Below are positions 2,347 to 52,190 of a DNA stretch of 64,000 nucleotides, piece after piece; the stretch's first letter is position 1; every line of letters starts with the position of its first letter. This DNA comes from Morchella semilibera. Its lineage: Eukaryota > Ascomycota > Pezizomycetes > Pezizales > Morchellaceae. Location: contig WBVU01000004.1 in assembly GCA_009192285.1 (NCBI GenBank), forward strand, positions 3,742,001-3,806,000, in the 5' to 3' direction. The position numbers and the translations under genes were made by a program. The notes under the pieces are model-generated. The model did no database searches, was not told the DNA's origin, and saw nothing but the letters and a program-made list of their open reading frames with translations.

Positions 2347-3153
2347 TATATGAGGCGGTGAGCGCTATTTGTGTTTCTTATTTCAACGCTAAGGTTTGTT
2401 TATTGAGAGTGGTTTTAATTTTGTATTGGTATCTAAAAAATGATACCCTCGTGGAAATTCCCTGTGGTAATACTTTAAACCCTAAAGTCGCCACCTCCGA
2501 CCGACCCTAACCCAAGAACCCCGTCCGAACCATATATATTGGTCATGAAAGATCACTCGGTATCAATAACTCAGCCGTTGTTGTAATGCGTGCCTAGGAG
2601 ACAACCATTGTGCCTAGGACTATTCTCCGGTACAGATGTCACTACCATGAGGACACAGTACGCCTCACCCTCTAGCATATAAGATCGTATTGTCCAGTCC
2701 TAAGATTACAAAAACCGCAACCTCATTGTGAGGACTATTTCTTACACTGTGATAGTAATAATAAATAATAATAATGCTGCCAATTTCGTAAACCTCTATG
2801 ACCTACGCCGGCGGACTAATATGATGGTATTCCCATGCTCAAAGGATGTGTTTGAGTAACAGCTAGTGAGAAACAATCCAAATCTTGGTATCGCAATCGA
2901 TAGTTCGTGACCGTTAGCCCTTTATCATGACGGGCTAGAGTCAACAAACAGCCCGCCCAGCCTTGATAATATACTAGCCTTGGCAGCTATAAACTGACAC
3001 CGTTTCTTGGGTACTCCCGACATTCTATATTATAATTGATTGGAGCTGACGTTACTTTTACTTGCGTTAGTAACTAAAGATCTAGTCCTTTGAACTACAT
3101 GCATTTTCGATCCGTACATCTATCCAATAAACAAAAACCGCCGTCGAAGCGTA
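2347..3153. other. intergenic, AT-rich
   Basis: About 0.8 kb between the 3' end of MED5 and the 3' end of a convergent gene. I see no coding frame. It contains a short (AATAAT)-type run near 2757-2775 and one copy of the dispersed 18-bp motif at 2543-2560. Confidence 0.6.
2543..2560 (+). repeat. 18-bp dispersed motif copy
   Basis: Reads TCATGAAAGATCACTCGG; fits TCAY-N6-TCACTCG. Confidence 0.55.
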
Positions 3154-4251
3154 TTACACCCCGTAAAGCATCATCTTGTTTCCATCCGCATCATAAATAC
3201 ATGTCTGCCTAAACTCCAGAGTATCACTATTGCGCTGTTGCTCATCTATATTGTCTTTCCCGCTTGCACCCTGGAACGACCCGCCAATATCGCTCTGAAA
3301 GCGAGGAGATGTTTTCGCCCAAGCCTGTTCTGGCGACATTGGTTCCGGTAATGGGCAAACATCAGAAGCTGACATGTAAAACGGCACTTTGGGGCTTTCG
3401 TATTCATTAGCTAGTGACGGCAGCGCCTTGTCTAAAGAGCCAGAGTAGCAGTGTCGAGATTCTGGAATATGTATTGCGATAGGCTTAACCCTACAGATAG
3501 AAACGGCTTTAGGCCAATTAGGTCCGGAGCTCGTATCTTGTGGGTCAGAGGCTGCTACACTGTTTAACGTATATTTGCCATCTGAGCCTGGTGTGATGAG
3601 AGGGATCGACTCTCTTGTTGCCCTCTGGGAGTTGAACATAGGGCTATTACTTGAAGGGGTTGTAGGCTGAGAGTGTGCACCCTGTGAACTAGGAGCTATA
3701 CCACCCGGTATGTATTTTCCCTCCGAATTTGGTGAAATGAGAGGGATCGGCCCTCCATGAGATTTAAAGCTAGGGCTGCGTCTTTCCTGTGAATATGGTA
3801 GAATTTTCGAAGCCGGGCCTGCGGGAGAGGCGGGTTTAGTGGGCCCAAACCCATTCACATACGTGATCGATGAGCTACAGCTGGGGGTAAGATTCTTATG
3901 CGGGCATGTGTTTCCACAAGTAGTAGCCACAGATGCGGGGCTCCTGTTCGGCAGCTGTGGTGGGGGAAACTGATACTTCTCTACGCCTGCGAGTTTATGC
4001 CTGTATCTTAATCTCCATGCGGAAACTCCTAGCCCCGTCAAGCTGAATATAACAAAGATAGCTGAGAGGCCTAGCCAGAGGGTGTTTAGGAAGCCTTTTT
4101 GGTTGCTGAAGCCGAGGACTGTGCCGTCTGGGTCAGTGTAGAAGATTCGGAAGATTGCGATCGAGAGGCTATTAGTGAAGAGTAGCAAGAAGATGTAGAG
4201 GTGGAGGTTTGGGAGCGCCATTTCGTATGCGGTAGGAGTGGATGAGTGCAC
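3154..4251 (-). CDS. hypothetical two-pass membrane protein with internal repeats
   Basis: Single-exon gene of 365 residues; I do not recognise a family. Two hydrophobic segments near residues 15-38 and 55-80 should anchor the N-terminal region. The long remainder is Pro/Ser-rich and probably cytosolic. A degenerate repeat occurs twice, built on IPLI(S/T)PxSxGKY (about residues 168-181 and 216-229). This may be a short linear binding motif. A cluster with HKxxTPSC and two CxxxC-like cysteines lies near residue 112. An internal Met at 4221 (MALPNL) is an equally good start, because the first ten residues are not hydrophobic. No intron is needed. Coding status rests on length, the hydrophobic pattern and the repeats. 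Confidence 0.6.
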   Translation of the reverse strand: MHSSTPTAYEMALPNLHLYIFLLLFTNSLSIAIFRIFYTDPDGTVLGFSNQKGFLNTLWLGLSAIFVIFSLTGLGVSAWRLRYRHKLAGVEKYQFPPPQLPNRSPASVATTCGNTCPHKNLTPSCSSSITYVNGFGPTKPASPAGPASKILPYSQERRSPSFKSHGGPIPLISPNSEGKYIPGGIAPSSQGAHSQPTTPSSNSPMFNSQRATRESIPLITPGSDGKYTLNSVAASDPQDTSSGPNWPKAVSICRVKPIAIHIPESRHCYSGSLDKALPSLANEYESPKVPFYMSASDVCPLPEPMSPEQAWAKTSPRFQSDIGGSFQGASGKDNIDEQQRNSDTLEFRQTCIYDADGNKMMLYGV

Positions 4252-5750
4252 GCATGGGCAAGTGGTTGGGTGTGATTGGTGGACGGGGTGGGGTGGGGTT
4301 GTGATCGTGAAAGATGGCGGGCGTTGGAGTTATTGTATGTTTCTGGGTTTCGAGATGGAGATGACACATTCACTGGTAGTCTTCTGGATGATAGAATTTA
4401 ACATTTAACTGTCAGGTTGATCATGGATCCCAAGGGGGAAAGGCCATCAGGTCATGCAGCTTATCGTAGAAATCTGTGTAAAAATAACTACCGAATTAGT
4501 AAACATAGAAATCTTTAGTTTATTACATTTACCATAGGGGGCCCGTAGTCAACAAATATAACCGATCACACAAACCCTCCTTATCTCGGAATTTTTTACG
4601 AATATACCGGTGATCTACATGATACCGAAAAGATTATCCAGCCCGTACACTGATATATAGTGCCCGAACTTGCACGGTTGTGATCATGGCATATCACTCG
4701 GGCGAATGAACCCCGCAGTTTTTTTTTAATTCATTTGTATCCAGCCCTTCGGCTATGACAATATCACACAAAACCCCAGGACTACCCTCGCAACCTCCGC
4801 CAAAACATCAAAGAAGAACACAAAGGAAAACCAGCCGAAATCAATCTATCGCCCTCTCTCGCCTGTCCAGTTACTCATTCTCAAGATCTCCCCATCCCCA
4901 ATTAAGTTCCTTTTCTCTTTCCGCTTCCTCTTGGTCCACCTCGCCTAGCCCCTGCCTATGCTTCGTCCATTGCTTCCACATCTCTACCGCTTTTTAACCC
5001 CACAGTTTTGTGAAGAGAACGAGACTTGACTGACTACAATACAAGAGAGGTGTCTTATGTACCCATACAAGACAGTCACATGTGTGCACCGGAAAAAAAG
5101 TTCTAGGCACTTTAGTTGACTATGCTCGGAAGCAACCAATATTACAACATACAGTGATATGTATACTATGGCTTTCAAACCCGGGGTGCTGCGACTGCGG
5201 GTTCGGCACGTCTGTAGTTTTTTTTTTCAGATCTTTAAGATATATCAAGGGAATCTATCATTGATAATACTGCTATTTGATACCAAAACAAACAACCACA
5301 TACACAGATGTATTTTTGCTCTCAGTGCATCACATTCCGATTTACTTCCCGTTCCCTATGTGTCTCGAGGACAGCTAAGTAACGGGGGCGAGCTCCCTCA
5401 AAAACGTCTAGAAAGGCCTTAATGGCTTATAGGCCGGTTATCTGCATGAAAACCATCCTCATAGTAAGATCCAGAAAACCTGAATCCATTTTTCAGGTCA
5501 ATGATATATACGGAAAACTTGAACCATATTTGCGGCTTTGGCCTTTTAATACCGCAATACGTGGACGGCCGAGCTTGAATCAAACCTACAATTAATTCAT
5601 GCGGAGATTTCAATATCTTGATACATCAACCTCCTTACATATAAACGTACTCCATGGTATGAACTCATCAAACTCACATTAGCTTCAATTCGCGCTATAA
5701 ACGCTTCACCAAAAAAATAATACCAAAAAAAATTACGCATTCTCTCCAAG
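4252..5750. other. intergenic, 1.5 kb
   Basis: Divergent region between the membrane-protein gene (leftward) and a RING gene (rightward), so it should hold both promoters. It has one 18-bp motif copy at 4684-4701 and poly-T tracts near 4720 and 5218. Small open frames such as 4755-4997 lack codon bias or homology I can recognise. Confidence 0.5.
4684..4701 (+). repeat. 18-bp dispersed motif copy
   Basis: Reads TCATGGCATATCACTCGG, one of the copies closest to the majority sequence. Confidence 0.6.
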
Positions 5751-6308
5751 ATGAGCAATAACACTACTACAGGCAGTAGTGGCAGCAGCGCCAACTCACA
5801 GCCCACCCGCAGAAACACCAGGTCGTCCCCAAACCGCCAACACGGCCCCAGAGACTTCATAGACCTAATCGTCGACTACCTTCACCCCGAGACCCCGCAT
5901 GACCCCCCCGCCTCCCCCGCCTCTTCAGCCTCCTCAGCCTCAGAGACCGATCTCCCTGCGGCCCTCTTCTGCGCCATGTGCAGTCGCCGTGAGAACAAAG
6001 TCCTCTTTACCGTATGCGGCCATCGTGCCTGCATTAGCTGCACCAAGCGGCTGTGGAACTCGACCCGGAATATAAATCCTGGGCACTTGAGTCAGTATAA
6101 CCCGCGGCCTATTTCATTCCCTTGCCCGTTTTGTAGGCTGGGGGTGGTGTGGGTGAGGGATGACTTGAGAGCCGATCCTGAGTTAGGTGGGGTCCCAACG
6201 CCGGCGGGGGAGGGGGAGAGGGGGACGAGGATTGTAGAGTGGACGTTGAAGGCTCCGAGGGCGGCGAGGGAGCGACTTGAGATGGATAAGAATGCAACGC
6301 AGGTATGA
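5751..6308 (+). CDS. small RING-finger protein (copy 1)
   Basis: Single-exon protein of 185 residues. A C3HC4 RING finger is complete: Cys74, Cys77, Cys89, His91, Cys94, Cys97, Cys125 and Cys128, with the core CGHRACISC. RING domains bind two zinc ions and usually act as E3 ubiquitin ligases; ligase activity here is inferred. The N-terminus is a low-complexity Ser/Asn/Thr stretch followed by a (PASSAS)-like run. The C-terminal ~55 residues are charged. The gap between the sixth and seventh zinc ligands is long (27 residues). A paralogue with the same ligand spacing and flanking motifs (RREN, CTKRLWNS, PISFPCPFCR) lies at 22104-22676 on the other strand. The start is the first ATG in frame, after an A-rich leader. 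Confidence 0.8.
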   Translation: MSNNTTTGSSGSSANSQPTRRNTRSSPNRQHGPRDFIDLIVDYLHPETPHDPPASPASSASSASETDLPAALFCAMCSRRENKVLFTVCGHRACISCTKRLWNSTRNINPGHLSQYNPRPISFPCPFCRLGVVWVRDDLRADPELGGVPTPAGEGERGTRIVEWTLKAPRAARERLEMDKNATQV

Positions 6309-7125
6309 TATGAGTTTGATTTGGTGAGGATGCAGTTGTGGGGTGCCTGCTAACGGGTGTGAGTCCAGGCGGGGCCTGGGGGAACGGGGGGATCAGGCGG
6401 ATCAGGAGCAGGCCGGAGTTTTTGGCAAGTATTTACAAATATTGGCCGGATATGATTATTCATATTTTAGCTGAGGGCCTGGAATTGAGCACACGGCTAG
6501 AATATTTAGAATATAGCAGTTGGTATTTCGGAGTGATTGATAGAAGGTAAGTATATGCCTCCCACAGACTGCAGTCGGAAAGTATTTCTTCTGGTGGCAG
6601 TTCTATCATCCATGCATGATAGGTTTATGGAAGGGTGTTTAGACTAGAATAAAAAGAATGAAAGAGAGAGGTTAGAAGAATAAAGTTAGACCCTATCCAA
6701 TTGCAAGCAATTTCCTATAATATAATACCAAGCACTGTGGTTGAGACATGGGCTGTCGAGAGAGGTAATCTGTCCATCAGGATGTTTTTATGCATATATA
6801 TGGCCAACAGAACTGCTGTCACTGTATGCAAGGATGCTATTCGTGCCCTCCCATTTCATAAGCTCCGTTGTATAGAATCATAAACGAACTTTCGGGGAGC
6901 GGCTCTTTCTGAAACTTTCCAATACCCGCCCCGAAAAGTTAGGAAGAAACTGTACTATATTAATTGTTCGTTTTACACTAGGGCCTATATTAACCTAGAA
7001 CCCTCATATAAACCTTTCTTGAACTTTGATGTCCTAATAAATTGAGGTTTTAGTGTGAACCACGAGGGTACTATCTACCTATATGTGCTACCTTATATCT
7101 ATATATCCTTTCAATCTTTGAATGA
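6309..7125. other. intergenic, 0.8 kb
   Basis: Lies between the 3' ends of the RING gene and the convergent NmrA-like gene. I see only short AT-rich runs and no coding signal. Confidence 0.5.
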
Positions 7126-8260
7126 CTACAAGGATCTACTCCAATCTTGCGACTCAAAATATTCCTTAGTACCCTTCATCTCAACTATTCCAAGGTCCCT
7201 TGGCGACAAAGCCTCTACCTTGCCTAAACTCTTACCATACTTCTCCCACAGTTTGAACATACTAGCTATCTCTAGTCCTACCTTTCCATGCAGCTCCCCA
7301 TACGATTCCTCAGTGACCTGAATGTACTTTGAACGATCCTGTACACCCGCAGCCTCCGCCCATAATTTGACCATCTGGCCAATGGTGAGATTCTCGCCGC
7401 TCACGGCTAAGACGTACTTCCCATTCAGGGTCTTTTCCGGCTGTGCTAGAATCGCAGAAACGATTGGTCCCAGGTCGCTCGCATGATCGATGAACGGTAC
7501 AGGCGTATCAGAAGGGATTGGAAGGAGGTATGCATAGGTCGTTTCCCCGCCATTAATCTACTCATCGTTAGCCGGCCGTTCGTAACAAATTGCAAAGGAA
7601 AGAAAAACACCTACAAGCTTGGTGACCGATACCACTGGCCAATGGAAGTTTTGCAAATAATACCCAATCCAAATAAATGTTGTCTTAGGCAACAAGGCCG
7701 AATCCTTGATATACTGGTCTACATCATCCTTCCCATCGAAGTGCGGAACCGAGATGTTGCCGCCCTTGTGCTTCGATGATTGTAACGTGGACCAGATGAA
7801 GTGCTCCAGAGTGGGTATTTCGAGTGCTGCGTCCACGATATTCTTTCCTTGTTTGGTTTCCAGGGCTTGTGCTTCCAGGGCACTAAGGCCACCAAAAAAA
7901 GGCGCCCAAAAATCGGTGACAGCAAAAATGGCGTTTGCATTCTGTTAGTCAGTTAGTAACGTTTTCCATGCTACACGAATGTTGGGATATACTTGGAAAG
8001 CACTGATGAGGGATGCTTTATCATTCAAATCACCTTGGACCACTTCGATGCCCTGTTGCGCCAGAGCAAGTGCTTTAGAGGAAGTGGGGTCTCGGGTTAT
8101 AGCACGAATTTTGTAAGTGCGCTGGGCGAGGAGAGTAGTTACTATAGCTCCGCCCTATTTGTTTTGTGTGAAATTGTTAATGCTATTTACTTATAGTCGA
8201 AACTGAGATGGTGTGACCTACCTGCCCGCCAGTTGCTCCAAGTACTGCGATTGTCTTCAT
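7126..8260 (-). CDS. NmrA-like NAD(P)-binding protein
   Basis: Four exons (8260-8222, 8154-7993, 7941-7615, 7557-7126) encode 319 residues. Introns of 67, 51 and 57 bp all have GT-AG ends and keep the frame. The product begins MKTIAVLGATGGQGG: the glycine-rich dinucleotide-binding loop (residues 8-15) of atypical short-chain dehydrogenases of the NmrA/HSCARG group. The first intron falls inside this loop. Later family-typical blocks are ITRDPTS, VVQGDLND, FIWSTLQS, WIGYYLQN and PVPFIDHASDLG. These proteins sense NADP/NAD redox state or act as reductases; the ligand cannot be told from sequence. The length is normal for the family and no key residue is missing. Confidence 0.85.
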
Positions 8261-8600
8261 TTTTGGAATGAGATGAGTTGATATTTGAGTTTTGGGTGAT
8301 GCTTAAATGTGAGATCTAGCTGATAGGATGTTTTTTCTCTACTTCTGATCTTCCTTGAACCCTCTTATATATGTTTCCCCGCGACGCCAGAAAGCGTTCA
8401 CGATACCTCGGGGCCCTTCGTCTTGCGATTTGAAATCCGTTGATGTATAATACTCCGCTAAATCCGTATCTCAGCCCACGAACTTGGTATACTAATTCTG
8501 CATTTGTAAGTCATAATGTAGTTTCCAGAAGTATTATTACAATTAGGTATTCAAAAAGTGTATTTATAATCTAACAGAGCCAATGTTTCTTATAGCTACA

Positions 8601-8708
8601 TGTACAGCGGTAGGTAATAAGTGATGGAACACAGCAGTACCTAATTTGTAAAACACCACCAACGCTTGTGCCGAGTGCGTTCCATCACTTATTACCTGTC
8701 GCTGTACA
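8601..8708. repeat. 108-bp hairpin (foldback) element
   Basis: The 30-bp arm 8601-8630 matches the reverse complement of 8679-8708 at 28 of 30 positions, with a 48-bp loop. It starts next to a TACATGTA octamer. It has the size and shape of a miniature inverted-repeat element or a small-RNA precursor. I found no sequence relative in the window. Confidence 0.7.
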
Positions 8709-11700
8709 TATCTAACGTCGGCTGCCCCAGCTGACAAATCTAGTCTTTAACTACATGTATGTAATCATGTCCTCGATCCTCGGCAAGCAGCTCGATTACT
8801 TGGTGTCTGCACACAACCCACTGTGATTTGACAAATACATGTAGGTGCTTGCAATTGCTTAATTCTGCCTAAACTTAAGCGCGACAATATAAAATTTACG
8901 AAATAGTTCGATCTCCAGCAGCAGCTGAAAGTGCTGTATCTTTAAATAAAGTACTGATCAAGGTTGTCTTCGAGCTTCAGCCCCGTGGATTCATTAAACT
9001 TTATGTGGCGGGTATTTTAATGCCTGCAATGATGCACTATCGATGCTTCTCACTTATGTATGTAGTAACGATCGAATGGCCACAATATAAGCTCGTTTAC
9101 ATGTAAGTAGGTACATGTATGTAGCTATGGTACTATAGCTAGTACTTTCCTGACGTTTGGAAAATGGACCACTATTGCATACCATACTAAATTTTGGACT
9201 TGGCGCGTATTTGTATGGCATGCAATAGGGGACTACGAGTAGTGGCTTCAGTGGGGGTTCGGTTATAGTTAATTCCATTATATGTACATGCATGTAGGTA
9301 TGTACCCAGGCAGCAGCCCTACGAGCCGTTTCTCTAGATAGAGTGTTGTGCAGTTCGTTGGTGTCTGTGCCTCAATTGTCAATCTAAGACTATCAGGGGC
9401 GCCGTATAGTAGTGCGTATACCATCCGCGTGTAATCTACCGATAGTCATCCGATGGGTTATTCGACCCCCAAGGTTTGTAGATTCGAAAAGTATACCTCT
9501 CACTTACATGTATATACCTAACAGCTATTAGAATTTCTAGCAGCACAGTCGGCGAGGTGCAGGAATTCCACAACAGCAATTATTATCGAGCTATAGAGTA
9601 TATATCAATACCATAAGCCGAGAACACGAACCCTCCCCCCAACCCCCAACCCCCAACTCTTCAACCCCTAGTACTTTTGAAACAGAAACCCTGACTCAGG
9701 GTCGAGGTTCTTGTGATCGTGGCCGAACTAGAATTGTAGGTACACGGGATCGATTCCCAGTGCCTTTCGAGGCTGAGTTGGGTTTTTGTATGGTGGGGGT
9801 CCGAGCACTAAGTACTTTCACGGTATGACATCCACTCTACCCTTCAGCTTAAGTTATGAGGCCGGCTGTGGGGACTATATTTTCTTACTCATGGTATACT
9901 CCATCTGAGGACGTTTATGAGTAAGTCCTGAGGTTTATATAATTTATCGAGTAAAATCTACACAATATATTTGACTCAATCCCTTCACACTCATGAATCA
10001 AAGCTAGCTATGAACTTTCTCAACCCCATCACATACAAATTTGGTTAGCTGGCAGGTAATGAGTGTGAGGGATAGTGATCTTCAGTCCCATGAATCCAAT
10101 TGGGTCTATAACTACCGCACTAAACCTCCAGAGATATCCCAAAGCTTAGCATTTACATTACCCGCAGACGTTGCGGTGAGCTTATGGTTATAGTTAAGCT
10201 TACAGGGAAATGCGTGGAGTGCAGAGGCGCTAGCTGCGGATCTGGGGTGGACAACTATCGAAGATATGTAAGTACCCCCAGATACATGTATTTATCATTC
10301 ATGGTGCTGTAACTTCATATTCAGTTAGATAATATCGGTAACCTTACTTTCTGTCTCTATTGTCCCCTGTAGTAGTAACTGTTGCCTTGGATAGCCAAAA
10401 ATCAGAGCTGAACTAGTCCTGGCCGGTAATAGTTAGACTGTTAATCCTAGACCATTCAACATTAAAACTAGACCAGGCATTAGTCTGCATGGGTTGAACA
10501 TATAGCTCAGATATCTATACGAGCCAGGGGAAAGTACATACTTGTATTGAGTCATGATCCAGCACTCAAGTCGGAGCATATGTACCTTACCGCGGAGGAT
10601 GAAAGAGAGAGAACGGATGCCTGGGCCTAACGTGTGAAGAGCATAGCTCCATAAGTTCTGCAAAGATAGAACTTGTAGATAGCTAATTCTGTGAGGTAGG
10701 TTAAGAAGAGGCATATCTGGGGCGGTGGTGAGGGTTAGTCACGGCCCTGCAGAAAAAGATGCACTTTGTCCTTTTTAGAAGCAATGTTTTCTATCTCCTC
10801 CGCAAGCCATCGTCTTAGCAAAGCATCTATAACCAAGCTTTGCTATAGCACTAATTCAGATGCATGTGCCTGGTTCTTGAAGACACAAGACTAGAGTGCA
10901 TATGTACATGTAGTACTCTGGGTGCACATCGTCCTCGTGATATGGGTCTACCTACATACATAGCTAGAGAACCGACGAAGATTGGAGCCCCTCAGCCAAA
11001 TTGCGGGGCAAATACGGATGAACCGCCACAAACATGGAACATAACAGATCCCGATATATACAGTATGGTGCCGGCCAATAATCGACCGGCCAGGCGCGCA
11101 AAATGCAGGCCAAAAATAGCCAAGACCTTTATTCCGTGATATCCGATGGGGGAGCCCGACAGCACTCGGTGAGTGCAAAAATTCGGTATTTTCTAGGGCT
11201 CGTTACAGTAATTAAAGGACAGTAGAGTTTCCGTAACCGTAGCAACTCTCTACGCGCTCCAGCAGCCGATAACCCCTCGAATTTGTAGTTTAGGGGGTTA
11301 GAGCTAGCCAGTAGTAGGCTTCAGACCATGTAGCCATCCGACACTGCTAATATACGCCTGTATGGGGCTAGGATTAGACACAGCCACACATGTACATGCA
11401 AAAAGAATATTGGGTAGATTCACCGGCGCGCTTTTCGGATGGTTCGGCATTTGAAGGCTATGTGGTATCAGAAGTTCGTATGTATTAGGCTTGAGATTTT
11501 GTTTTGATTGACCACTGAAAACCCCAAACGCCTAGGCACCACAAACCCATTAGAGTAAGCATGAGCCATTCCCTGTCCATAGTCGAGCAATAGAGTAAAT
11601 ATGTATTCACATCTACGTACTTTTACCACTGCGTACAGCAGCTCCTCATCTCCCCAAAGAAAAAAAAGCTCAGCATACGTAAATGTGTATCTAGTGATTG

Positions 11701-11951
11701 GACAGCGGCAGAGACAGACGGACATAATTACCCGATTATCCACGTTCAAGCGGTTACTAATCCATTGAGTAGATCTATAGAGTTGAACGCTCGGTGAGTC
11801 AGCTCCAGTGTGTGGTTACATCGGCGCGGAGTAATCGGCTCTTTATGTTTAGATTTCGATGTACGCAGATGCGGATGCGGATACATACATTCAAGTGCGT
11901 GGAATTGCCAAGCCCATAGGTCTCAGAGGCTTAAATGATCTGATTAGATAA

Positions 11952-11969
11952 TCGAGTGAGAGTTTATGA
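11952..11969 (-). repeat. 18-bp dispersed motif copy
   Basis: Reads TCATAAACTCTCACTCGA on the minus strand and fits TCAY-N6-TCACTCG exactly. Confidence 0.55.
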
Positions 11970-15475: not shown

Positions 15476-16375
15476 ATTCCTCGGTTCCCTTTTTCTTTTC
15501 TTCTTTCTCTACCTCAAAATAGTTTTTTTTTTCTTTTTTTCATTTTTCTTCGGTAATGACTTCATGTACAATACTCTTTCAACGAAACGGAATCTTACGA
15601 ATTTTCTCTCTCCCCCCCCCCCCTGCCTTCTAGAAAGTCACATGTATTCTAAACACGCCTCTTTCTGCCTCTACATTACCATATGGTTCCACGCGGCGAT
15701 ACAGTAATGCCACACCACATATCCTACCCAACCCGACCCGATGGATGTAAGCACGCACACTGAGTGAGTGAGCGAGTGACAGAGTGAGTGATAATAAGCC
15801 CACAGAGCACCACCCCACCAACCAACCAGCCAACCACTGGTCATCCGCCCACCCGCCAGCACCCGGTATTACATACGTACCACGTGCCAAACATACATGT
15901 ACATAGCCACACACTAGACTAGACTAGCGATCATGTATTCTCACTCGCAGAAGTAAAAGTAAAAGTAGAAGTAAAAAAAGAAAGAAAGAAAAACCACATC
16001 TAGCAAAAGAGCCCAGAACATTACGTTACATGCGCAAGAAAGAAAGGATCTAGTCAGTACAGTAGCTATAGCTAGAGCCAGGAGCTAGACAGCAGACCGC
16101 CAGCATCACCATTAAAGCTTCACCGAACCAAACAAAACCCAATAATGTAATGTAATGCAATGCACTGAAACCGAGTAGAAGAACAAGACAGGAATGAGGT
16201 GCAAATTTTCCCGGTCCACTTTACGGATATCTATCTATCTACCCTTTCTCTCTCCCTCCCCCGCCAGCTCTGGCGCAATACAGACAAAAACGAGACAAAA
16301 CGAGACAAAGCAAAAGAGCAAAAGAAACAGACAGCAACAGAATACAGCATACAAGAGAGGAAAAAAGGAAACCAC
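15476..16375. other. convergent 3' intergenic region
   Basis: Lies between the LtrA-family and Tcp11 gene ends. It holds pyrimidine runs (15481-15545, C-run near 15611), GTGA/GAGT tandem runs at about 15761-15795, a TACATGTA octamer (15894) and an 18-bp motif copy (15931-15948). No gene was seen. Confidence 0.5.
15931..15948 (+). repeat. 18-bp dispersed motif copy
   Basis: Reads TCATGTATTCTCACTCGC; fits TCAY-N6-TCACTCG exactly. Confidence 0.5.
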
Positions 16376-21149: not shown

Positions 21150-21167
21150 GCGAGTGATATCCCATGA
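21150..21167 (-). repeat. 18-bp dispersed motif copy
   Basis: Reads TCATGGGATATCACTCGC on the minus strand, one of the best matches to the consensus. Confidence 0.6.
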
Positions 21168-21834: not shown

Positions 21835-21852
21835 TCACAGGATATCACTCAC
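21835..21852 (+). repeat. 18-bp dispersed motif copy (imperfect)
   Basis: Reads TCACAGGATATCACTCAC; differs only at the CG step. Confidence 0.5.
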
Positions 21853-22103: not shown

Positions 22104-22676
22104 CTACATAAAGTCCTCGTCAGTAAACGGAGCCTCACCCTTCATCTCCGCCTCCAATCTTTCCTTAGCCTTATCCGAGACCAGCAAGATCCATTCCGCC
22201 ACCAGCACTCCCTGCTCGTCCTTTCTCGCACCACCTGTCTGCTTGTCAGCCCTCCGCGAGTCATCCCTAACACTCACCACCACGCCCCTACAGAACGGGC
22301 AAGGGAAGGAAATTGGCCATGGGTCGTGGGGCTTGCTCGGCTGGTTCCTCATGGAATTCCATAGCCGCTTTGTGCAGCTGGTGCAAGCGCGGTGCCCGCA
22401 TACCACGAACAGAACTGAGTTCTCGCGGCGGTTGCAAATGCTGCAGAGGAGGTTCTCGGGGACGTCGCTGTCCGACTCCCCGGACCCGGATGAAGGAGGA
22501 GTGATAGGAGGTAGTTCGTTGATGCCGGGAGTATACGAAAGGAGCTCATCTAGAAAATTTCCACCAATAGGGTTAGTCACGGCTGGTGGGCTGGAGCTTG
22601 ATGGGTTGTTCTGGGCGGGCTGTTCTGTATTTCTAGTCCCACTGCCGCTGCCGCTTGCGTTCGTGTTGTTATCCAT
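22104..22676 (-). CDS. small RING-finger protein (copy 2)
   Basis: Single-exon protein of 190 residues and paralogue of the gene at 5751. The C3HC4 ligands are Cys78, Cys81, Cys93, His95, Cys98, Cys101, Cys126 and Cys129. Ligand spacing is identical through the first six ligands and shorter before the seventh. The shared segments RREN, VCGHRAC, SCTKRLWNS and PISFPCPFC make common descent clear. The flanks are diverged but keep the same style: a Ser/Asn-rich N-terminus and a charged C-terminus ending GEAPFTDEDFM. The function is probably ubiquitin transfer, by family. The antisense frame at 21874-22683 is a shadow of this gene. Confidence 0.8.
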   Translation of the reverse strand: MDNNTNASGSGSGTRNTEQPAQNNPSSSSPPAVTNPIGGNFLDELLSYTPGINELPPITPPSSGSGESDSDVPENLLCSICNRRENSVLFVVCGHRACTSCTKRLWNSMRNQPSKPHDPWPISFPCPFCRGVVVSVRDDSRRADKQTGGARKDEQGVLVAEWILLVSDKAKERLEAEMKGEAPFTDEDFM

Positions 22677-23742: not shown

Positions 23743-23760
23743 TCACAGAAAATCACTCGC
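23743..23760 (+). repeat. 18-bp dispersed motif copy
   Basis: Reads TCACAGAAAATCACTCGC; fits TCAY-N6-TCACTCG. It lies 60 bp left of a hairpin element. Confidence 0.5.
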
Positions 23761-23819
23761 GCGCCTAGAATCTTCGTTGCTTCCGGGGCGCAACTTATGT
23801 GTCTGGACTATATTCTCGG

Positions 23820-28967: not shown

Positions 28968-29648
28968 GCTAAAGGTCTAGAGAGGTATGGGACTAACTAG
29001 ATATATAAATACATGTAGTGGGGCCAGGTCAACATGTAGATACATGTACTCTACTACGCGAGAGCCAAGCTTTATCGGAGTTGAGGGCGGGGGAGGGAGC
29101 TGCCAATCCAGACTTGGAGGTGTGGGGTGTGTGAGGTTCCTGGGAGTCGGGATTTCTAATACTAAGGCCAAAGGGGATCCCAAAAACATTCTTTTTTTCG
29201 GACTGGTCTAAAACATTGGGGCCGCTTTTACCTGCATATTGCGGAGGTATTGCAAAGAGTGTTTCCAGAAGCCTACTATGACTGGTCATGCAGGGTCACT
29301 CAGGTAGAGCTAGATCAGGAGTGCGGGGGATTTTCTGTCGTTGGACGATTTCATTTAATGGCTAGCCAATAAGATCGTATGAACAAACTTTTTTAGAGTA
29401 CATATCCTTCTTACCTTTTGTGCCGGTGAGTTTTTTATGGTATTTATGATAGAGTTGATTGTTTCTATTGGCCTTTTACCATGCAGTAGTACGATTTGGG
29501 TGGTGGTGATTGAACATCTTAGAGTTGTGGTGGTCGATCAGGCGATACGTGTCTGAAATCTTAATTTCGGCTCAATCTATCAATGCCTTGAGAAATTACT
29601 GTCTTTACCACAAGATTTAGGAACCACCTCATATTTTCATCTCTGAAA
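28968..29648. promoter_or_regulatory. divergent intergenic region
   Basis: 0.7 kb between the leftward aldo-keto reductase and the rightward unknown gene. It has TACATGTA at 29010 and 29041 and an imperfect 18-bp motif at 29286-29303. It probably contains both promoters. Confidence 0.45.
29286..29303 (+). repeat. 18-bp dispersed motif copy (imperfect)
   Basis: Reads TCATGCAGGGTCACTCAG; one mismatch (CA for CG) to TCAY-N6-TCACTCG. Confidence 0.35.
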
Positions 29649-34640: not shown

Positions 34641-34658
34641 TCATATAATATCACTCGG
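34641..34658 (+). repeat. 18-bp dispersed motif copy
   Basis: Reads TCATATAATATCACTCGG; a full match to TCAY-N6-TCACTCG. Confidence 0.6.
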
Positions 34659-35680: not shown

Positions 35681-35711
35681 ACTTACAATAATTCCAGGTA
35701 CATGTACCTAC

Positions 35712-35793
35712 TACGGGTGTAAGGGTAAGTCTGGCGACAGTAAGAACTGTTGCAACGACGGCCAGTGTCGCCAGACTTACCCCTACACCCGTA
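35712..35793. repeat. 82-bp hairpin element
   Basis: The arm 35712-35739 pairs with 35766-35793 at 27 of 28 positions (core GGTAAGTCTGGCGACA), with a 26-base loop. TACATGTA lies just outside the left arm (35699). Confidence 0.8.
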
Positions 35794-36824: not shown

Positions 36825-36842
36825 CCGAGTGATGTATCATGA
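36825..36842 (-). repeat. 18-bp dispersed motif copy
   Basis: Reads TCATGATACATCACTCGG on the minus strand. Confidence 0.6.
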
Positions 36843-38288: not shown

Positions 38289-38306
38289 ACGAGTGATATG
38301 TCGTGA
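38289..38306 (-). repeat. 18-bp dispersed motif copy
   Basis: Reads TCACGACATATCACTCGT on the minus strand. Confidence 0.6.

Positions 38307-39838: not shown

Positions 39839-39894
<56 letters not shown>
39839..39894. repeat. C-run joined to A-run
   Basis: About 21 C are followed directly by about 35 A. It could be slippage expansion, a retroelement tail on the plus strand, or an assembly artefact. No retroelement frame is visible upstream. Confidence 0.9.
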
Positions 39895-39897
<3 letters not shown>

Positions 39898-45260: not shown

Positions 45261-45563
45261 TTTGGTTGTAATATTTTTCTATTAATTTAGTACCTTGAGA
45301 CTGGCACCGCGTGTAATAATATCTATGGAGGGCGTTAATGGGACATATGGTAAATGAAATTGATGTGGGATGGGATAAATGGGCGTTTAAAACAATTCAA
45401 TTTTTATGTTCTTAGTCAGAATTCACGCTTTATTGCTATTTAAAATTTTAGTCTAGCACTCCTAAACCAGATTACTATTCAAAGAGCGCTAACAATGAAA
45501 AATAATATATTGTACGAGATCACGCACTAAATAAAGACAACTGTGAGCGCTGATGCATATATA

Positions 45564-45994
45564 CACTTGGGTGACAGAAGTTTTGGCGATTACACTTTTT
45601 ACAGCCAAAGTAGCCATTTTTAGCAACATGAACAAACAACTCAACGCTAGGCAAAAAATTCAACCTTTAGGCAGAAGCTCGGAACTTATCTCGAGATCAT
45701 GATAAATGAGTTCCAGAATTTTAAATTCAATTATCAAGAATTTGTGAAGCATCTTCTAAAATTTGTATGTATTCTCATACAAATTTCTGCATGGCAACAG
45801 GCTCAAGATTACAAAATACACCACCAACACTGCAGAAGTAAAATTTAAATTCCGGAATTCATTTATGACAATCTTAAGATAACCTCTAAGCTTTTGTCCA
45901 AATTCCAAATCATTTGGCCAACGTTGTGTGGTTGATTCAGGTCCCTAAACATGGCTACAAAGGTGTAATCGCCAAAACTTTTGTCCTAGTACTA
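45564..45994. mobile_element. non-autonomous Tc1/mariner-like foldback element
   Basis: GACARAAGTTTTGGCGATTACAC occurs inverted at 45573-45595 and 45963-45985. Both ends are flanked by TA (45562-45563 and 45995-45996) at the same distance. A second inner inverted pair (roughly 45695-45735 against 45840-45885, sharing ATAAATGA-TTCC-GAATTT) makes the whole element a foldback. TA flanks and GACAAAAGTTTTGGC-type ends suit the Tc1/mariner class. There is no transposase frame, so it would have moved in trans. Confidence 0.75.
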
Positions 45995-46184
45995 TACACG
46001 GTCAATTAAATGATAGGGTACAGTCTTCAATAGATACATGTACTTAAATACATACAGTAATAAATACATACTACAATACATGTATGAAGTATAAATAAAT
46101 AAATAACTACATAGTACATGTATTTATCTAGCCCTTATCTTAGCTATAGTAAAACGTTACTGTAACTTTGTCTGAATAGTTCAT

Positions 46185-46202
46185 TCATGGAATATCACTC
46201 GC
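46185..46202 (+). repeat. 18-bp dispersed motif copy
   Basis: Reads TCATGGAATATCACTCGC. Confidence 0.6.
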
Positions 46203-46539
46203 TAATTCAGCGTGGTACAGCTTTAGAGACATCGGTATAAGGTGCTTGGTTTCTGGGTTATAGGGCCATAGGGCCTGTAATATACCATTATATCTGGTAT
46301 ATTTTTGTCTAACGTACTACATGTCACCATGGGGTACCAACACCACTAATAACGACTGCACAGACGTACCCACCCAGCCCCGAAAACCCACGCCCAATAC
46401 ACAGGAGCACCACCTACTCCTCAAGAGAAACACCACTCTGAGACTTTATTTTGTCCTCTTAAATTGATTAGATCTATATGTATGCACCCCCAAGAAATAC
46501 ATAAAATGGAAAACCGAAATTCGAGGGGGTACATGATGT

Positions 46540-46679
46540 ATCCCATAAACCGTCGAGACAATGCTGACACCCCTTCCCAAAATTCCAACGAGTGGCTAGT
46601 GCTAATAAATTCTATGGTACTTGTTGGTGGAGCTTTCGGTCTCACATAAGGGGTGTCAGCAACGCTGGTTTATGGGATC
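46540..46679. repeat. 140-bp imperfect hairpin element
   Basis: The arms at 46540-46575 and 46648-46679 share ATCCCATAAACC and GCTGACACCCCTT in inverted order. The left arm has about four extra bases between the blocks. The loop is about 72 bases. Confidence 0.7.
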
Positions 46680-47656
46680 CGTGCAGAGAAATTGAGCATC
46701 AGCCACAGTGATATCCATACATGTATCTATAACTCCCGCCCCATAGCCCTAGGTCTATAATCTTATTTTGTTCTATCAAACTTCACAGATAAGGGTCCCA
46801 TCTCGATCACCAGTAAATCACTTAAGTACCAAGTTCCTGTTGACCGCCCAATGTAAACAGCTCTCCCTAATTAAAATTAAACTTAAACCCAAATATGCAT
46901 AACCAAGAATTAAAGAGACACTCGCCAAACCATAGCTGCATGCAACGGACTAAACTAATCTTTCCAGCCCAAGAACCCCCCACACCAAGACGCAAGATTA
47001 ACCACGCTCAACACAAACTCCATCAACAGTGAGTTTACCATTGCCCTTAAAACCCCATCCCCACCCCCACCCCTCCTCATAGCTCTCCTCCTGCTAATCA
47101 CCATCACCCATAAACTGTTTTTACAAGCATACACCTCACGTTTTTAGGGGCCGTATATCTTTCATGTAGGTTTGTGGGGTCGCCGCTGGGGTGATTTTCG
47201 CGGAGAAAGTGGAATAGGTACCTCTTGGGGCCGGCGGCTGTGGGGGGGCTGGGTATTCTGGTTTACCCGCCTCTTCTTGATCTATGACTGACATTTTTTT
47301 ATTGACGGTGGTTTGTTTAGCTTGTGTGATGAGGGGTGGGGGTATGCTCTGAGCTTTTATAAACCCTTAAGGAATGCAAGCGTGAAATTGGTCCCTATGA
47401 TAGGTAGTTATCAGCTCGCTACTCACAGCGACTTAAGTAAATATATGGAACCAATATTTAGTGGCTTCACGGTCGATATATCCTAAGAATACGGGACCAT
47501 CGAAAGTCAGACCAAGGGGGAACGAGATCTGTACAATGATATCTGAGATTACTTGCTTATCAATACAGGATGATTGCAAGCTTCGGTCTTCCGTGCATGG
47601 TTCCCATTTGTTTAATTACTGAAAATAGTTTATGTTACTATTTCAGGTAATTACAG

Positions 47657-47674
47657 TCATAGGATATCACTCGG
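47657..47674 (+). repeat. 18-bp dispersed motif copy
   Basis: Reads TCATAGGATATCACTCGG, close to the majority sequence. Confidence 0.6.
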
Positions 47675-47834
47675 TGGGAAGGCCCATCATTACCCAAATT
47701 TCTACAAATATTACGTCTACGCGGTATTCCGTAACGCTACACGCCGCTTTAAGTCAATGCTCCAGGGGCCTGACGTTTTACTTAGGGCAGTCTATGAGCA
47801 GAAACGGTTTTTAACTAAGATGAGTCGATCATGA

Positions 47835-47981
47835 TAGACGACTTCCCTGGCCACTCGGACACCCCCCCACTCGGACAGTCAATGATGATTGGTAGAGAAG
47901 CCACTTAAATTGTTGATCCTCCCTTTTTTACGTTAACCGTCCGAGTGAGGGGGGTGTCCGGGTGGCCAGGGAAACCGTCTA
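47835..47981. repeat. 147-bp hairpin element
   Basis: The ~42-bp arms 47835-47876 and 47939-47981 pair with only a few mismatches and one indel. They share TAGACG at the tip, TTCCCTGGCCAC and CACTCGGAC. The loop is about 62 bases. It has the longest arms of the hairpins found. Confidence 0.8.
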
Positions 47982-48302
47982 CTTCAAAAACTAAAGATGT
48001 TAGCGTCCGACAACCAAAAAAATAGTGACTTTTGCGGGTAGTTGTAATTAACTACTGTATATAGTACGTTTGTTATGAGGAACGTACTTTTATTGCATTC
48101 ACAACATGCAGTACTAATAAGCCTAGCTAGCCTCTTCACAGTGCCAAGAAACTATGGGCGGGGTGCACCCTTCTTTGCTTTGTAGTTTATGAAACACAAG
48201 GTGTCAAAGATCTATCAGCCTTGTAGACCAGGATCCTAATGTTTTGCCGAATCAGAGGAGCTGTCGACCCTCCATCTCCACCCTCCCTATATTAACAACC
48301 CT

Positions 48303-49317
48303 CTATGAGACTACACGAGGGCGTGATTCCCTTTCTATTAAGTTATCCCACTGGATATCCCTAAGAACTTTCTTGACTTCTCTAAGAGTCAACTTCCTAA
48401 AGCCATTTACTCCTACAACCCCAACCTCAACCTCATCATTCTCCAATGTAGTCGCCAGAACCGTATTCAAGGCTTTGACACCTATATTTGCAAGTAGCCG
48501 CCAGTTTCCATAGGCATATCCCCTATCTCCAAACTTTCTTTCAAGATAGGTGAGAAGTTGCTGCTCTCTGGGGCCCGAAGCAACGGCTTTGTATTCGATG
48601 CATTCAGCAGCAGGGTTGACTTTGAAGATCCGCGGACCTGACTCGTCATCTATAGATATAAGAGTCATTGCCGCACCAAGTGGGCGCATATGCGCCTTGA
48701 CTTTACTTTAGCGATTTCCCAATTGGCTAGGCTGGGGAGAAAGGGCTCCTTACACGTTGGGTATAAACCTGGCTTATATTTGCCAGCCTCTGTGAGAGGG
48801 CATTGCACGGTATCTCGTAGCCGTTCGTTTTATAGAACTCTGCAGCTTCGCTACGAGCACGGGTGACAAGGGCACGGGCATCGGGCACACTGCCAGTCAT
48901 CACACAGCCGATTGAAGGGGATATCTGGAATATGTGAGTTACTGAAATTGGATCAATGAGTTTCTCCTGATAATAACCGTCATTGAGCACTCCCTCCATA
49001 GTAGTAGTAAGATAAGAAAATCATTCTTACCGGTAAACGCTTATACGCGATAACAACGGCACACTCTTTGCCACGAATACCAACGGAATTGACATGTGTT
49101 CCTGATCCTGAAACTGCCTTTGATGCGTACTCTGAAGGATCATCAGCAAGCTCGATGACAATGGAATAGTGGACTCACCAACTTGAAAGATCCTTCCTTC
49201 GGGCGAGAATACAGTAATGTGTCTGTCTGTGTAGTCTGCTTCACACTTTCAGCTGCCAATTCCGGTCATATCATGAAATGCAATTCGATGTTTTCTTATG
49301 ATCAACAAACCTGACAT
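48303..49317 (-). CDS. SCL1: 20S proteasome subunit alpha-1 (Scl1/PSMA6 type)
   Basis: Five exons (49317-49311, 49235-49179, 49131-49031, 48966-48754, 48695-48303) give 256 residues. The start [28 protein letters not shown] is the alpha-subunit signature that gates the 20S core. SVGIRGKE, SPSIGCVMTG, PDARALVTRARSEAAEF, ISQVYTQR and MRPLG are specific to the alpha-1 type. Alpha subunits are non-catalytic and form the outer rings. Exon 1 is only 7 nt, placed because it supplies ATG and joins in frame to the signature. The C-terminal ~20 residues (IERESRPRVVS) diverge from the usual end. Introns are 47-75 bp. Confidence 0.88.
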
Positions 49318-52190
49318 GTTGATCTCTCTGAGTTAGAATTCTTATAACTAGATGATATGCAGTTGTTGGAGGTGTTAATGAGCCGATGAATGTTAATGTC
49401 ACGAGAACGTTGTACTCTAGTTTATGTTTTACGTTCACAGCACGTCACTCGATATGAACAGGTGGCGCAAATCACCGCCACCACAACCTACCCGTTTATC
49501 CTATCCTATCTTTCCGCGGGAGTTCTCTAACACAGTCAAAGGTGTATTCACTCATATATGTCTAAAATCATCTCCTGATTCCCGTTATCACGCGCGTGCG
49601 TTAATGATGCAAATCTACCACAAATGACGATCATCTCTCCAGAAAGCTGGAGCGAATGCAAGATTAAGTACCCTTGATTGGATATTTATAGGTTTGATAA
49701 GGCTGGAGCGAGACCTCTGGGCAATGTACGTGTGTATGTGGATAATCTCTTCTCTGTTTGACCCAGAGGACCTACATATTCTCAACCAGCCCACAGCAAC
49801 TTCAGTAGGTCAAGAACTCTCGACGATACATACCCCCTAAAGATAAAAAAACACTCCCACAACTTATAACCCAGCCCCACGCCCCCCAGGAATTCCACGA
49901 TAACGGAGACGATCACAACACAAAATGATATCACGTTTCACGATTTCAAACCACAAACCGAACAGCGTTGGAAGAAACACGCACAGAATCAAGATCTGAG
50001 AAGGACATAGGACCACATTTTCCTTTTCCTCACATTTACAGGTCTAATTAAGCCACGCACCTGAGTAGCTAGTATAGGTATAAAGTAGGTATGATGCGGA
50101 CCGCGTGCACGCATCATCGCCGACCTGGAAACTTCTCTATCGCACGGAGATTTCCACATACCTGCCGGTCCGTTACCAACACCTGCCTTGGAGGAGGAGG
50201 AGGAGGAGAGCGTGTTCAGTTAGGGCACAGTTGTTGGAACCTTAACCCTACGTGATATTTTTGTGGGGTAAGAAGTTGACACATCACGAAAAAGCCTAGT
50301 ACGGAACGGGGGATGTGTGCAGGTACGAGCCAGCTAGCATTTGAGCGTTTTTTTTTCTCGATATCAACAACCAGAATACATCCTTGTTGATGCAAGTTAT
50401 CGAAAAGATATCGAGATCGCTGGCCTGGGAAACCGCCCAACCCCGCCGGGGGCAGCCTCACCTGAAATGGTGTCAATGAATCCCCAACGAGGCTAGAAGC
50501 CGTCATCGTAAAATACACCATGTTTCTACTGGCCAAAGCTCCCGTACTGGAAGGTTCTTTGGAACATCGGGAGGTTTCCCAGATTCCGAGAAAGTTTCTC
50601 TTGGGGCTCTATGTAGTGTTCCTAGGGTTAGGGCTCTACCATTAATACCCGCATATTGTGCATAGAGAGTACCTATGTCGAATTCATCCCCTATTTGCCT
50701 ACCACGTCTCACCTCATCTGAACACATCAACACCCAGCGGAACCCAGGGCTAAGCCCGTGCTATACATACATACATACGTATAACACTGACAACGTCAGC
50801 AAACCAACTTCGACAGAGGCTCTAAAAAAGAAGTTGCCCCCCATCAAGTGGCTGTTGGCAAAAGCACTAACTATGGAGAAATGTCCTATGTCTGGATCCG
50901 GATCCAACGCCTGAAGTGCGAATTTCCGCTGCTGACCTTGGCTTATCAATTGATGCAAGCCGCAAAGACGTAGTAACGTGCGCAATTCCACTGCCATGCT
51001 GCTCCAATAGAGTGTGACCCACACGTTCGTTGTGCTGAGACTATTGGAGGAAGGGATACCAATCGCGTGAGCCTATGCGTTGGATGGAACATGGACGTCC
51101 ACATACACTTCTTTCGGAGATAGGGAAGGCAACAAGCGAGCCGTGAGCGCAGCAGGATGGAGGGAGGTTAACCACATAGTCCGGCTCCGAGTCATGCGGG
51201 CCGTTGGGTTCAGAATGCTTATGCTGGCGCTCGGGAATATTGTGGGGGTGTATTGGAAGGGTTTCGGAGATACAGTATATAGTTGCTCCAAGTTGGGCTC
51301 TGCAGGCAACATAAGGGGAACCAGGGTTTAAAAGGGAAGAGAGCTAGGCAAATGGACAACGCAGTGAGAGTTGTTGACAATCACGAGGACTCGAACATAT
51401 GCATGATATGATCTGGACAGCAATATTTGTGGTGCCGCGACACATAAACCTTTTCATGAAGTGGACCTGTAGAGTAGAATAGCTACATACACAACTCCAA
51501 AGGGAGTCAAAGGTCGGATGTCATCGGCTAATAGTTCCCTAGAATAGCTGAAGATAGCCTGTCTGCGGTGCTGAGTGCAGGAGTTCACAGCGAGCAGGAA
51601 GTAATCTTTGTCGGTAGTTAGATCTTCTGAAAGGAAATTGTCTTAGTTGGAACTCCAGGAGATGCGAATGAGATGCTCATCAACTTACCAAATTTCACTT
51701 CTATGAAACGGGCGTTCCATGCACTCCTGCTCGGAAGCGAAAATTTGGAATATGGATATCAAATCTACGAATGCCTGGCGGCTTTCTATACGCCTACCAG
51801 TACCTAAATGCGCATCATATACTCACATGCAGCATAGCCATTCAGTCCGTTTCACCCTGAGTATCAAAAAAAAGTGGGAACAGAACCAGGCGTGGCGTAA
51901 ACAAAATTTAACTGGTGCCATGAAAATTTTTACGAAACCACCCTAAATACTTCACATGTGAAGTTAGATATTTGAAGTTGTAGCTTTAAGGGTTAGGCTT
52001 TCAATCCCATGGGCTAGGGTTACCATTGAGGCTCTTCCCACCCTATCCAGATTAGTCTAGCACCAGCATGGTTAAACTTTTTTCTTCAACCTCCAACAAC
52101 CAACCTCACAGCGCCCACCACCACCACCAACCCAACCCAACCCAACCAGCATTGACCCTCTCCCCCCATCCAATTCTATATCAATTCGCA
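49318..52190. other. intergenic, 2.9 kb
   Basis: Divergent region between the proteasome gene (leftward) and NHP2 (rightward). It has an 18-bp motif copy (49435-49452), a (GGA)n run (50195-50210) and short open frames near 50216-51331 that I do not recognise and would not annotate. The last ~100 bp before the NHP2 ATG are rich in CCACCA and CCCAA. Confidence 0.5.
49435..49452 (+). repeat. 18-bp dispersed motif copy
   Basis: Reads TCACAGCACGTCACTCGA. It lies about 120 bp upstream of the proteasome gene start. Confidence 0.45.

What the first reader, a model, noticed from the sequence alone, without database searches (positions are those of the whole stretch)
2543..49452. Bipartite 18-bp motif TCAY-N6-TCACTCG repeated about 14 times in non-coding DNA
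Copies at fixed spacing: 2543, 4684, 15931, 23743, 34641, 46185, 47657, 49435 (plus strand); 11952, 21150, 36825, 38289 (minus strand); near matches at 21835, 29286 and a weaker one at 55212. Most also read ATA before TCACTCG (majority TCATGGRATATCACTCGG). Chance expectation for the exact pattern is well below one in this window. Bases on either side do not align, so these are not obvious fragments of one long repeat. None is in an exon. It could be a protein-binding site, the conserved tip of an ancient element, or part of an unannotated small RNA gene. I do not know a named motif that matches.
Basis: seen in the sequence. Interest (0 to 1): 0.72.

Follow-up and report, generated by a model that had tools for sequence, protein, structure and literature searches.

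The report
Morel genome-wide bipartite DNA motif
A morel mushroom genome carries about 8,500 copies of one short, sharply defined two-part DNA word scattered through its non-coding DNA with mostly unrelated surroundings, which looks like the landing site of an unidentified protein rather than debris of a mobile element.

Summary
TCAYN6TCACTCG occurs 12 times exactly in the window (0.03 expected) and 8,470 times in the 56.76 Mb genome (44 for the pattern reversed). By size, scaffold number, longest scaffold and telomere unit the genome matches Morchella crassipes. The spacer is exactly 6 (44 sites; at most 3 at any other spacing 0-15). No column outside about -2..+16 is conserved (81 sites). 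0 of 44 copies lie in predicted coding DNA, 8.7 expected. The motifs at 46185 and 47657 lie outside every match found elsewhere in the genome. The two transitions of the terminal CG differ tenfold: TCACTCA 890 (control 125), TCACTTG 118 (control 40). Decay of dead copies does not predict that; base-specific recognition under selection does. Best reading: sites of a DNA-binding protein with two contact modules one helical turn apart, probably distal or architectural, since sites look sparse upstream of genes (tentative). Protein and function are unknown. Not supported: transposon tip, small-RNA gene.

The parts
2543..2559 (+). exact motif copy TCATGAAAGATCACTCG
4684..4700 (+). exact motif copy TCATGGCATATCACTCG
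11953..11969 (-). exact motif copy TCATAAACTCTCACTCG
15931..15947 (+). exact motif copy TCATGTATTCTCACTCG
21151..21167 (-). exact motif copy TCATGGGATATCACTCG
21835..21851 (+). near copy ending TCACTCA, a variant with 890 copies genome-wide
23743..23759 (+). exact motif copy TCACAGAAAATCACTCG
29286..29302 (+). near copy ending TCACTCA
34641..34657 (+). exact motif copy TCATATAATATCACTCG
36826..36842 (-). exact motif copy TCATGATACATCACTCG
38290..38306 (-). exact motif copy TCACGACATATCACTCG
46185..46201 (+). exact motif copy TCATGGAATATCACTCG; not covered by any match elsewhere in the genome
47657..47673 (+). exact motif copy TCATAGGATATCACTCG; not covered by any match elsewhere in the genome listed
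49435..49451 (+). exact motif copy TCACAGCACGTCACTCG
55213..55229 (-). one-mismatch copy (first base A); may be chance

Best explanation
The motif is the recognition site of a sequence-specific DNA-binding protein of the morel. SHOWN: about 8,500 exact copies, exact 6-bp spacer, both strands equally, absent from predicted coding DNA in the 264 kb examined, no conserved flank columns, and a tenfold difference between the two transitions of one CG. INFERRED: the two halves (A)TCAY and (A)TCACTCG start 10 bp apart, one helical turn, so a protein with two tandem DNA-binding modules would contact two successive major grooves on one face of the helix; copies packed end to end at 18-19 bp suggest a footprint of about 18 bp. 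INFERRED, weaker: because sites are sparse within 1 kb upstream of predicted gene starts and occur in long intergenic stretches (seven in 6 kb of L029), the protein acts mainly as a distal or architectural factor (boundary, insulator, chromatin organiser) rather than as an ordinary promoter factor. My estimate is 0.85 for 'selected protein-binding site' and about 0.4 for 'distal/architectural'; the confidence below is for the combined statement, the second part being only 'more likely distal than promoter'.
For: 8,470 exact copies (4,244 + / 4,226 -) against 44 for the reversed pattern. Spacer: 44 sites at N6, 0-3 at each other spacing 0-15; 85 of the first 100 listed genome matches with free spacing 0-30 have 6. 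Information confined to about -2..+16. Apart from telomere repeats and TACATGTA words it is the top pair of 5-mers (gap 0-20) in the 264 kb sample. TCACTCA 890 (control 125) against TCACTTG 118 (control 40): tenfold difference in excess. Single mismatches pooled are few beside the exact sites: TCAYN5ATCACTCG at <=1 mismatch 11,482, control 394. 0 of 44 in coding, 8.7 expected. Motifs 46185 and 47657 outside all other-place matches (40 of 119 candidates scored). Very short range clustering: 160 tandem pairs with gap 0-30 against about 20 expected, 31 of the 100 listed at gap 1-2 (29 of 94 without rows from near-duplicate scaffolds); 65 outward-facing inverted pairs against about 10, 11 of the 50 listed at gap 9 (10 of 48 without near-duplicates). 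Upstream: within 1 kb of predicted 5' ends 5, 2, 1 and 1 sites against 10.2, 8.4, 8.0 and 6.1 expected at thresholds 12, 15, 20, 25.
Against: No binding protein identified and no chromatin or expression data. Upstream depletion rests on 44 sites and home-made coding predictions (Poisson 0.06, 0.010, 0.003 at thresholds 12, 15, 20) whose false-call rate is high at low thresholds (40 of 107, 20 of 85, 7 of 64 by reversed sequence); excess between convergent genes is not clear (15 against 10.2, 9 against 6.4, 7 against 6.9, 9 against 7.6). At kilobase scale the sites are close to randomly spread (gaps <500 bp 17 against 14.7), so there is no sharp anchoring to genes. A 138 kb stretch of scaffold C1 has no copy on either strand, about 21 expected, though it holds at least one gene-like ORF. 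The CpG asymmetry was not calibrated on neutral CpGs; sequence context could contribute, though hardly tenfold. The only diverged duplicate found (C1:49761/55822, 74% over 351 bp) keeps the motif, but its near flanks are also well conserved and one copy has 26 extra bases carrying a second site, so it is weak evidence. Near-miss numbers alone would also fit a young burst.
Confidence: 0.55

Rival explanations
1. A promoter-type general regulatory factor site (working like yeast Abf1/Reb1/Rap1): a two-module protein opens chromatin at thousands of promoters.
For: Density of one per 6.7 kb and a sharp bipartite consensus are what such factors show (recalled); 0.73 sites per gene using the 11,565 genes of the genome paper.
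Against: Fewer, not more, sites within 1 kb of predicted 5' ends; seven sites in L029 lie between what look, from ORF scores, like the 3' ends of two genes; flat G+C around 44 sites, no A/T-rich dip.
Confidence: 0.2
2. A hyper-iterated word spread by molecular drive (biased conversion or repair at the recognised word) with no use at each individual site.
For: Near-random kilobase-scale spacing, strand symmetry, no gene anchoring; a second hyperabundant word, TACATGTA, with the same avoidance of coding DNA.
Against: Drive towards the word still needs a recognising protein; short-range clustering with preferred pair geometry is more typical of cooperative binding sites.
Confidence: 0.12
3. Remnant of a transposon or SINE (conserved tip of an ancient element).
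For: High copy number and even spread; the genome holds many short dispersed repeats, some near motif copies.
Against: No conserved column past about 20 bp; motifs 46185 and 47657 lie outside all other-place rows, while neighbouring short repeats are found in many copies; variable spacer inside a fixed frame; CpG asymmetry.
Confidence: 0.04
4. Upstream element of thousands of small-RNA genes, as the motif upstream of nematode 21U-RNAs (recalled).
For: Thousands of copies outside coding DNA; close neighbours (<2 kb) tend to share strand, 48 of 71, or 42 of 65 without the L029 cluster (P 0.004 and 0.025).
Against: No second signal at a fixed distance within 200 bp (44 sites); no strongly enriched 6-mer within 100 bp (81 sites); no Rfam hit in the window.
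Confidence: 0.05
5. Replication-origin or other chromosome-maintenance element.
For: Even genome-wide spread, avoidance of coding DNA.
Against: One per 6.7 kb is dense for origins (recalled comparison), no A/T-rich flank; a 138 kb stretch has none.
Confidence: 0.04

Closest known systems
Yeast general regulatory factor sites (Abf1, Reb1, Rap1; recalled)
   Same: sharp, long, partly bipartite consensus; roughly one site per several kb; two DNA-contact modules in Abf1/Rap1
   Different: sequence differs; those lie in promoter nucleosome-free regions, these look sparse upstream of genes
CTCF insulator sites of animals (recalled)
   Same: thousands of dispersed, oriented, long, sharp sites outside genes; close neighbours tend to share strand here
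   Different: unrelated sequence; no such factor is known to me in fungi; no contact-map test done
CENP-B box and bipartite sites of domesticated pogo-type transposases (recalled)
   Same: 17-bp two-part site read by tandem helix-turn-helix modules
   Different: different letters; not in satellite arrays; dispersed, mostly single sites
Motif upstream of nematode 21U-RNAs (recalled)
   Same: thousands of dispersed copies of one short motif
   Different: no fixed-distance partner or start signal seen here
Hyper-iterated words such as HIP1 of cyanobacteria or DNA uptake sequences (recalled)
   Same: extreme over-representation, both strands, spread genome-wide
   Different: eukaryote, not found in predicted coding DNA, 17 bp with a free spacer

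Membership tests
Promoter general regulatory factor site | located in a window just upstream of transcription starts | tested here: not met
   5, 2, 1 and 1 of 44 sites within 1 kb of predicted 5' ends against 10.2, 8.4, 8.0 and 6.1 expected at thresholds 12, 15, 20, 25; coding ends stand in for mapped starts, so this is a rough test
Promoter general regulatory factor site | bound by a sequence-specific protein in vivo | not testable with these tools
   no ChIP, ATAC or footprint data held
Transposable element remnant | copies align beyond the shared core | tested here: not met
   no conserved column beyond about -2..+16 at 44 and 81 sites; 2 of 44 sites in self-similar DNA at E 1e-10; two window motifs outside all repeats found genome-wide
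Transposable element remnant | equivalent mutations decay alike | tested here: not met
   CG to CA 890 (control 125), CG to TG 118 (control 40); not calibrated on neutral CpGs
Small-RNA gene element | fixed-distance start or structural signal downstream | tested here: not met
   no conserved column within 200 bp; no Rfam match in the window
Small-RNA gene element | small RNAs transcribed from the sites | not testable with these tools
   no RNA data held
CTCF-like insulator site | many dispersed long sharp sites outside coding DNA | tested here: met
CTCF-like insulator site | sites at borders of contact domains | not testable with these tools
   Hi-C was used for Morchella sextelata (PMC13208314, passages seen) but no contact data are held here
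Hyper-iterated word spread by drive | transmission or repair bias towards the word | not testable with these tools
   needs crosses or population data

The most novel reading that the evidence does not exclude
Morels carry an architectural DNA-binding protein, a fungal functional counterpart of an insulator factor, with about 8,500 oriented intergenic sites of a previously undescribed 17-bp bipartite word that partitions the genome.
Probability: 0.25. Interest if true: 0.88.

Novelty: new variant of a known kind. Interest (0 to 1): 0.68.

Why it matters
An exact two-part 17-bp word kept some 8,500 times in non-coding DNA implies a dedicated reader protein acting on the whole genome. I know of no distal genome-wide site factor of this kind in fungi. 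Morels are cultivated; RNA-seq for M. crassipes and Hi-C for M. sextelata are reported in the two genome papers I saw in part, so a cheap test could show whether fungi evolved their own genome-organising site system. No listed paper of my searches names this motif, but the lists show only 20 of 70, 15 of 222, 12 of 206 and 12 of 10,288 papers, and the library lacks most subscription journals.

Tried and rejected
Transposon tip, SINE or MITE: rejected on the 20-bp limit of conservation and the placing outside repeats. RNA gene: no Rfam hit at gathering scores and no tRNA in the window, no conserved column in the flanks. Companion motif nearby: best 6-mers within 100 bp are weak; TACATGTA lies somewhat closer to sites than to random points (medians 744 against 978 bp in the window, 655 against 1,507 in C1:1-200000), but random points included coding DNA, so I make no claim. 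A first coding model of order 4 kept only its own training ORFs and was dropped; the order-2 model still segments on reversed sequence against 107 real ones at score 12, 20 against 85 at 15 and 7 against 64 at 20, so gene distances are approximate. The motif-poor 138 kb stretch was first taken for a transposon region; L050 from its middle showed one short repeat of about 86 bp (40 of 90 candidates scored) and an ORF that I read by eye as the start of a protein disulfide isomerase (no family search), so that idea was dropped. Diverged duplicates as a conservation test: one pair found, too little. Literature, all as search listings unless said: CGAGTGA in an Aspergillus nidulans promoter paper was only a PCR primer (PMC4046813, passages); the 15 papers that hold TCACTCG were listed, not opened; searches listed nothing on this motif (one search lists two Phytophthora infestans promoter-motif papers that hold TACATGTA, not opened). 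A PDB search with the Tcp11-like protein found nothing.
Full report
WHAT WAS CHECKED. The pattern TCAYN6TCACTCG occurs 12 times exactly in the window against 0.03 expected from dinucleotide shuffles, and 16 times with up to one mismatch against 1.69. The eighteenth base is not conserved.

WHERE THIS IS. The window is scaffold C20:3742001-3806000 of a 56,756,124-base genome in 23 pieces. The longest piece whose length I saw is C1 at 7,341,407 bases, and C1 begins with a telomere of unit CTAACCCTAA. The Morchella crassipes genome paper reports 56.7 Mb, 23 scaffolds, a longest sequence of 7.34 Mb and telomere unit TTAGGGTTAG or CTAACCCTAA (PMC7014384: abstract, passages, outline and section 2.3 seen); a later paper gives 56.76 Mb for it (PMC13208314: start of abstract and passages seen). 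I take the genome to be M. crassipes; this is inference from matching figures. Proteins in the window fit a fungus: Med5, Tcp11, serine carboxypeptidase closest in the PDB to yeast Kex1, aldo/keto reductase, RGS.

GENOME-WIDE NUMBER. 8,470 exact copies (4,244 and 4,226 on the two strands) against 44 for the pattern read backwards, one per 6.7 kb. Some scaffolds look like near-duplicates of each other (see noticed items), so the number of independent sites is somewhat lower. In 264 kb (window plus C1:1-200000) there are 44 exact sites at spacing 6 and 0-3 at each other spacing from 0 to 15. With the spacing left free from 0 to 30, 85 of the first 100 listed genome matches have spacing 6 and the other 15 are spread over 11 spacings.

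ANATOMY. Over 81 sites (44 from window and C1 stretch, 7 from L029, the rest from L033-L049, fetched because each holds a TCATGRRATATCACTCG site, so the spacer is biased; 17 of the 31 sites in those loci are of that type) the signal runs from about -2 to +16: weak R at -2, A/G at -1, TCAY, then a soft R-R-R-H-T-A, then TCACTCG; A at position +9 in 68 of 81. The 44 unpicked sites show the same trend (36 of 44 A at +9). No column within 200 bp outside the motif exceeds 0.31 bits (44 sites). The halves (A)TCAY and (A)TCAC start 10 bp apart, one turn of the helix; that a protein with two tandem modules reads them is inference.

SELECTION OR DECAY. If copies were dead and decaying, the two transitions of the terminal CG should be about equally common, because they are the same chemical event on opposite strands. 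They are not: TCACTCA 890 (control 125), TCACTTG 118 (control 40), excesses of 765 and 78. I did not calibrate this on neutral CpGs. With up to one mismatch the pattern TCAYN5ATCACTCG gives 11,482 (control 394). Since all 8,470 exact sites should be counted in this, about 3,000 have A at +9 and one mismatch elsewhere, before subtracting chance; the TCACTCA class probably makes up some 700 of these (estimate). Near-miss numbers alone would allow a young burst, but then long flanks should align. I read the whole as base-specific recognition kept by selection. One diverged duplicate (C1:49761/55822, 74% over 351 bp) keeps the motif in both copies, with one site in one copy and two sites 26 bp apart in the other, the second ending in TCACTCA; this is a single weak case.

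NOT A TRANSPOSON. The 2.4 kb around 46185 and 47657 was compared with the whole genome. 51 matches were listed (40 of 119 first-look candidates scored); none other than the self-match covers either motif, although neighbouring short repeats at about 45557-45998, 46535-46692 and 47830-47900 have many copies. Within the 264 kb sample 2 of 44 sites (the duplicate pair above) fall in self-similar sequence at E 1e-10. At the lax E 1e-3, 8 further sites of 44 have some match within 300 bp; the only one of these that covers the motif is a 21-bp identity between 47657 and C1:93594. Two sites, C1:82418 and C1:120616, share a short dispersed repeat 50-180 bp away, in opposite orientation, with further copies at places without the motif. 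I read these as chance neighbourhood of a common repeat.

PLACE RELATIVE TO GENES. With a self-trained coding model, 0 of 44 sites lie in coding segments where 8.7 were expected (7.7 at threshold 20). Within 1 kb of predicted 5' ends there are 5, 2, 1 and 1 sites at thresholds 12, 15, 20 and 25 against 10.2, 8.4, 8.0 and 6.1 expected (Poisson 0.06, 0.010, 0.003 for the first three). Sites between convergent genes are 15, 9, 7 and 9 against 10.2, 6.4, 6.9 and 7.6, no clear excess. The model is crude, so I call upstream depletion tentative. L029 (C1:857001-866000) holds seven + strand copies in 6 kb of mostly low-scoring, presumably non-coding DNA.

SPREAD AND PAIRING. On C1:1-1,090,255 both strands could be listed: 184 sites. 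Spread is close to random at kilobase scale (gaps under 500 bp 17 against 14.7; under 1 kb 37 against 28.4; under 2 kb 71 against 52.4, and after removing the empty stretch 72 against 58.7, P 0.012). Neighbours under 2 kb share strand in 48 of 71 cases (P 0.004); six of these pairs are the L029 cluster, and without it the figure is 42 of 65 (P 0.025); over all neighbours 96 of 183 do, against 91.6. A 138,304-bp stretch (635,606-773,910) has none on either strand, about 21 expected at the genome mean. Very short range shows pairing: 160 tandem pairs with gap 0-30 against about 20, 31 of the 100 listed at gap 1-2 and none at 0; 65 outward-facing inverted pairs against about 10, 11 of the 50 listed at gap 9; 46 inward-facing pairs of the ATCACTCG core. 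Dropping rows that look like the same site on near-duplicate scaffolds leaves 29 of 94 and 10 of 48. Some tandem pairs are plain local repeats (four 23-bp units at C1:5477752).

VERDICT. A real and extreme signal, best explained as the site of an unidentified two-module DNA-binding protein. Whether it works as a promoter factor, a distal or architectural factor, or is spread by drive is open; the location evidence leans to distal. No paper listed by my searches names this motif (several lists were cut, and three papers were opened in part). Statements on yeast factors, CTCF, CENP-B, nematode small RNAs and HIP1 are recalled, not looked up.

Noticed in passing
whole genome; e.g. 121 sites in window plus C1:1-200000 (L009-L028): A second hyperabundant word, the palindrome TACATGTA: 22,206 sites against 3,723 for the reversed word; 0 of 121 in predicted coding DNA, 24 expected; extended form TANNTACATGTANNTA.
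   Followed up: partly
scaffold pairs C9/C10, C12/C13 and, by fewer matches, C21/C22: Matches recur at nearly equal coordinates on both scaffolds of each pair, as if two haplotypes or duplicated chromosomes were both kept in the assembly.
   Followed up: no
C1:635606-773910 (L050 = C1:700001-703000): 138 kb with no motif copy on either strand although at least one gene-like ORF lies in it; cause unknown.
   Followed up: partly
window 45557-45998: Self-inverted repeat (about 424 bp, 66% to its own reverse complement) with direct relatives of 73-94% identity over 99-460 bp on several scaffolds; looks like a palindromic short mobile element.
   Followed up: partly
window 46535-46692 and 47830-47900: Two short dispersed repeats; 28 of the 51 rows match the first, at 79-96% identity.
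   Followed up: no
C1:1-200 (L009): Telomere with the ten-base unit CTAACCCTAA instead of the plain six-base unit, as reported for M. crassipes.
   Followed up: yes
C1:857001-866000 (L029): Seven same-strand motif copies in 6 kb, apparently between the 3' ends of two genes as judged from ORF scores.
   Followed up: partly
window 5751-6308 (+) and 22104-22676 (-): Two similar-looking RING-finger-type proteins about 16 kb apart (Pfam was run on the first only and its two RING matches are below their cutoffs).
   Followed up: no
e.g. C1:1693584-1693626, C4:789553-789595: 11 of 50 listed outward-facing inverted motif pairs (10 of 48 without near-duplicate scaffolds) have a gap of exactly 9 bp; preferred dimer geometry or a small palindromic repeat family.
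   Followed up: no
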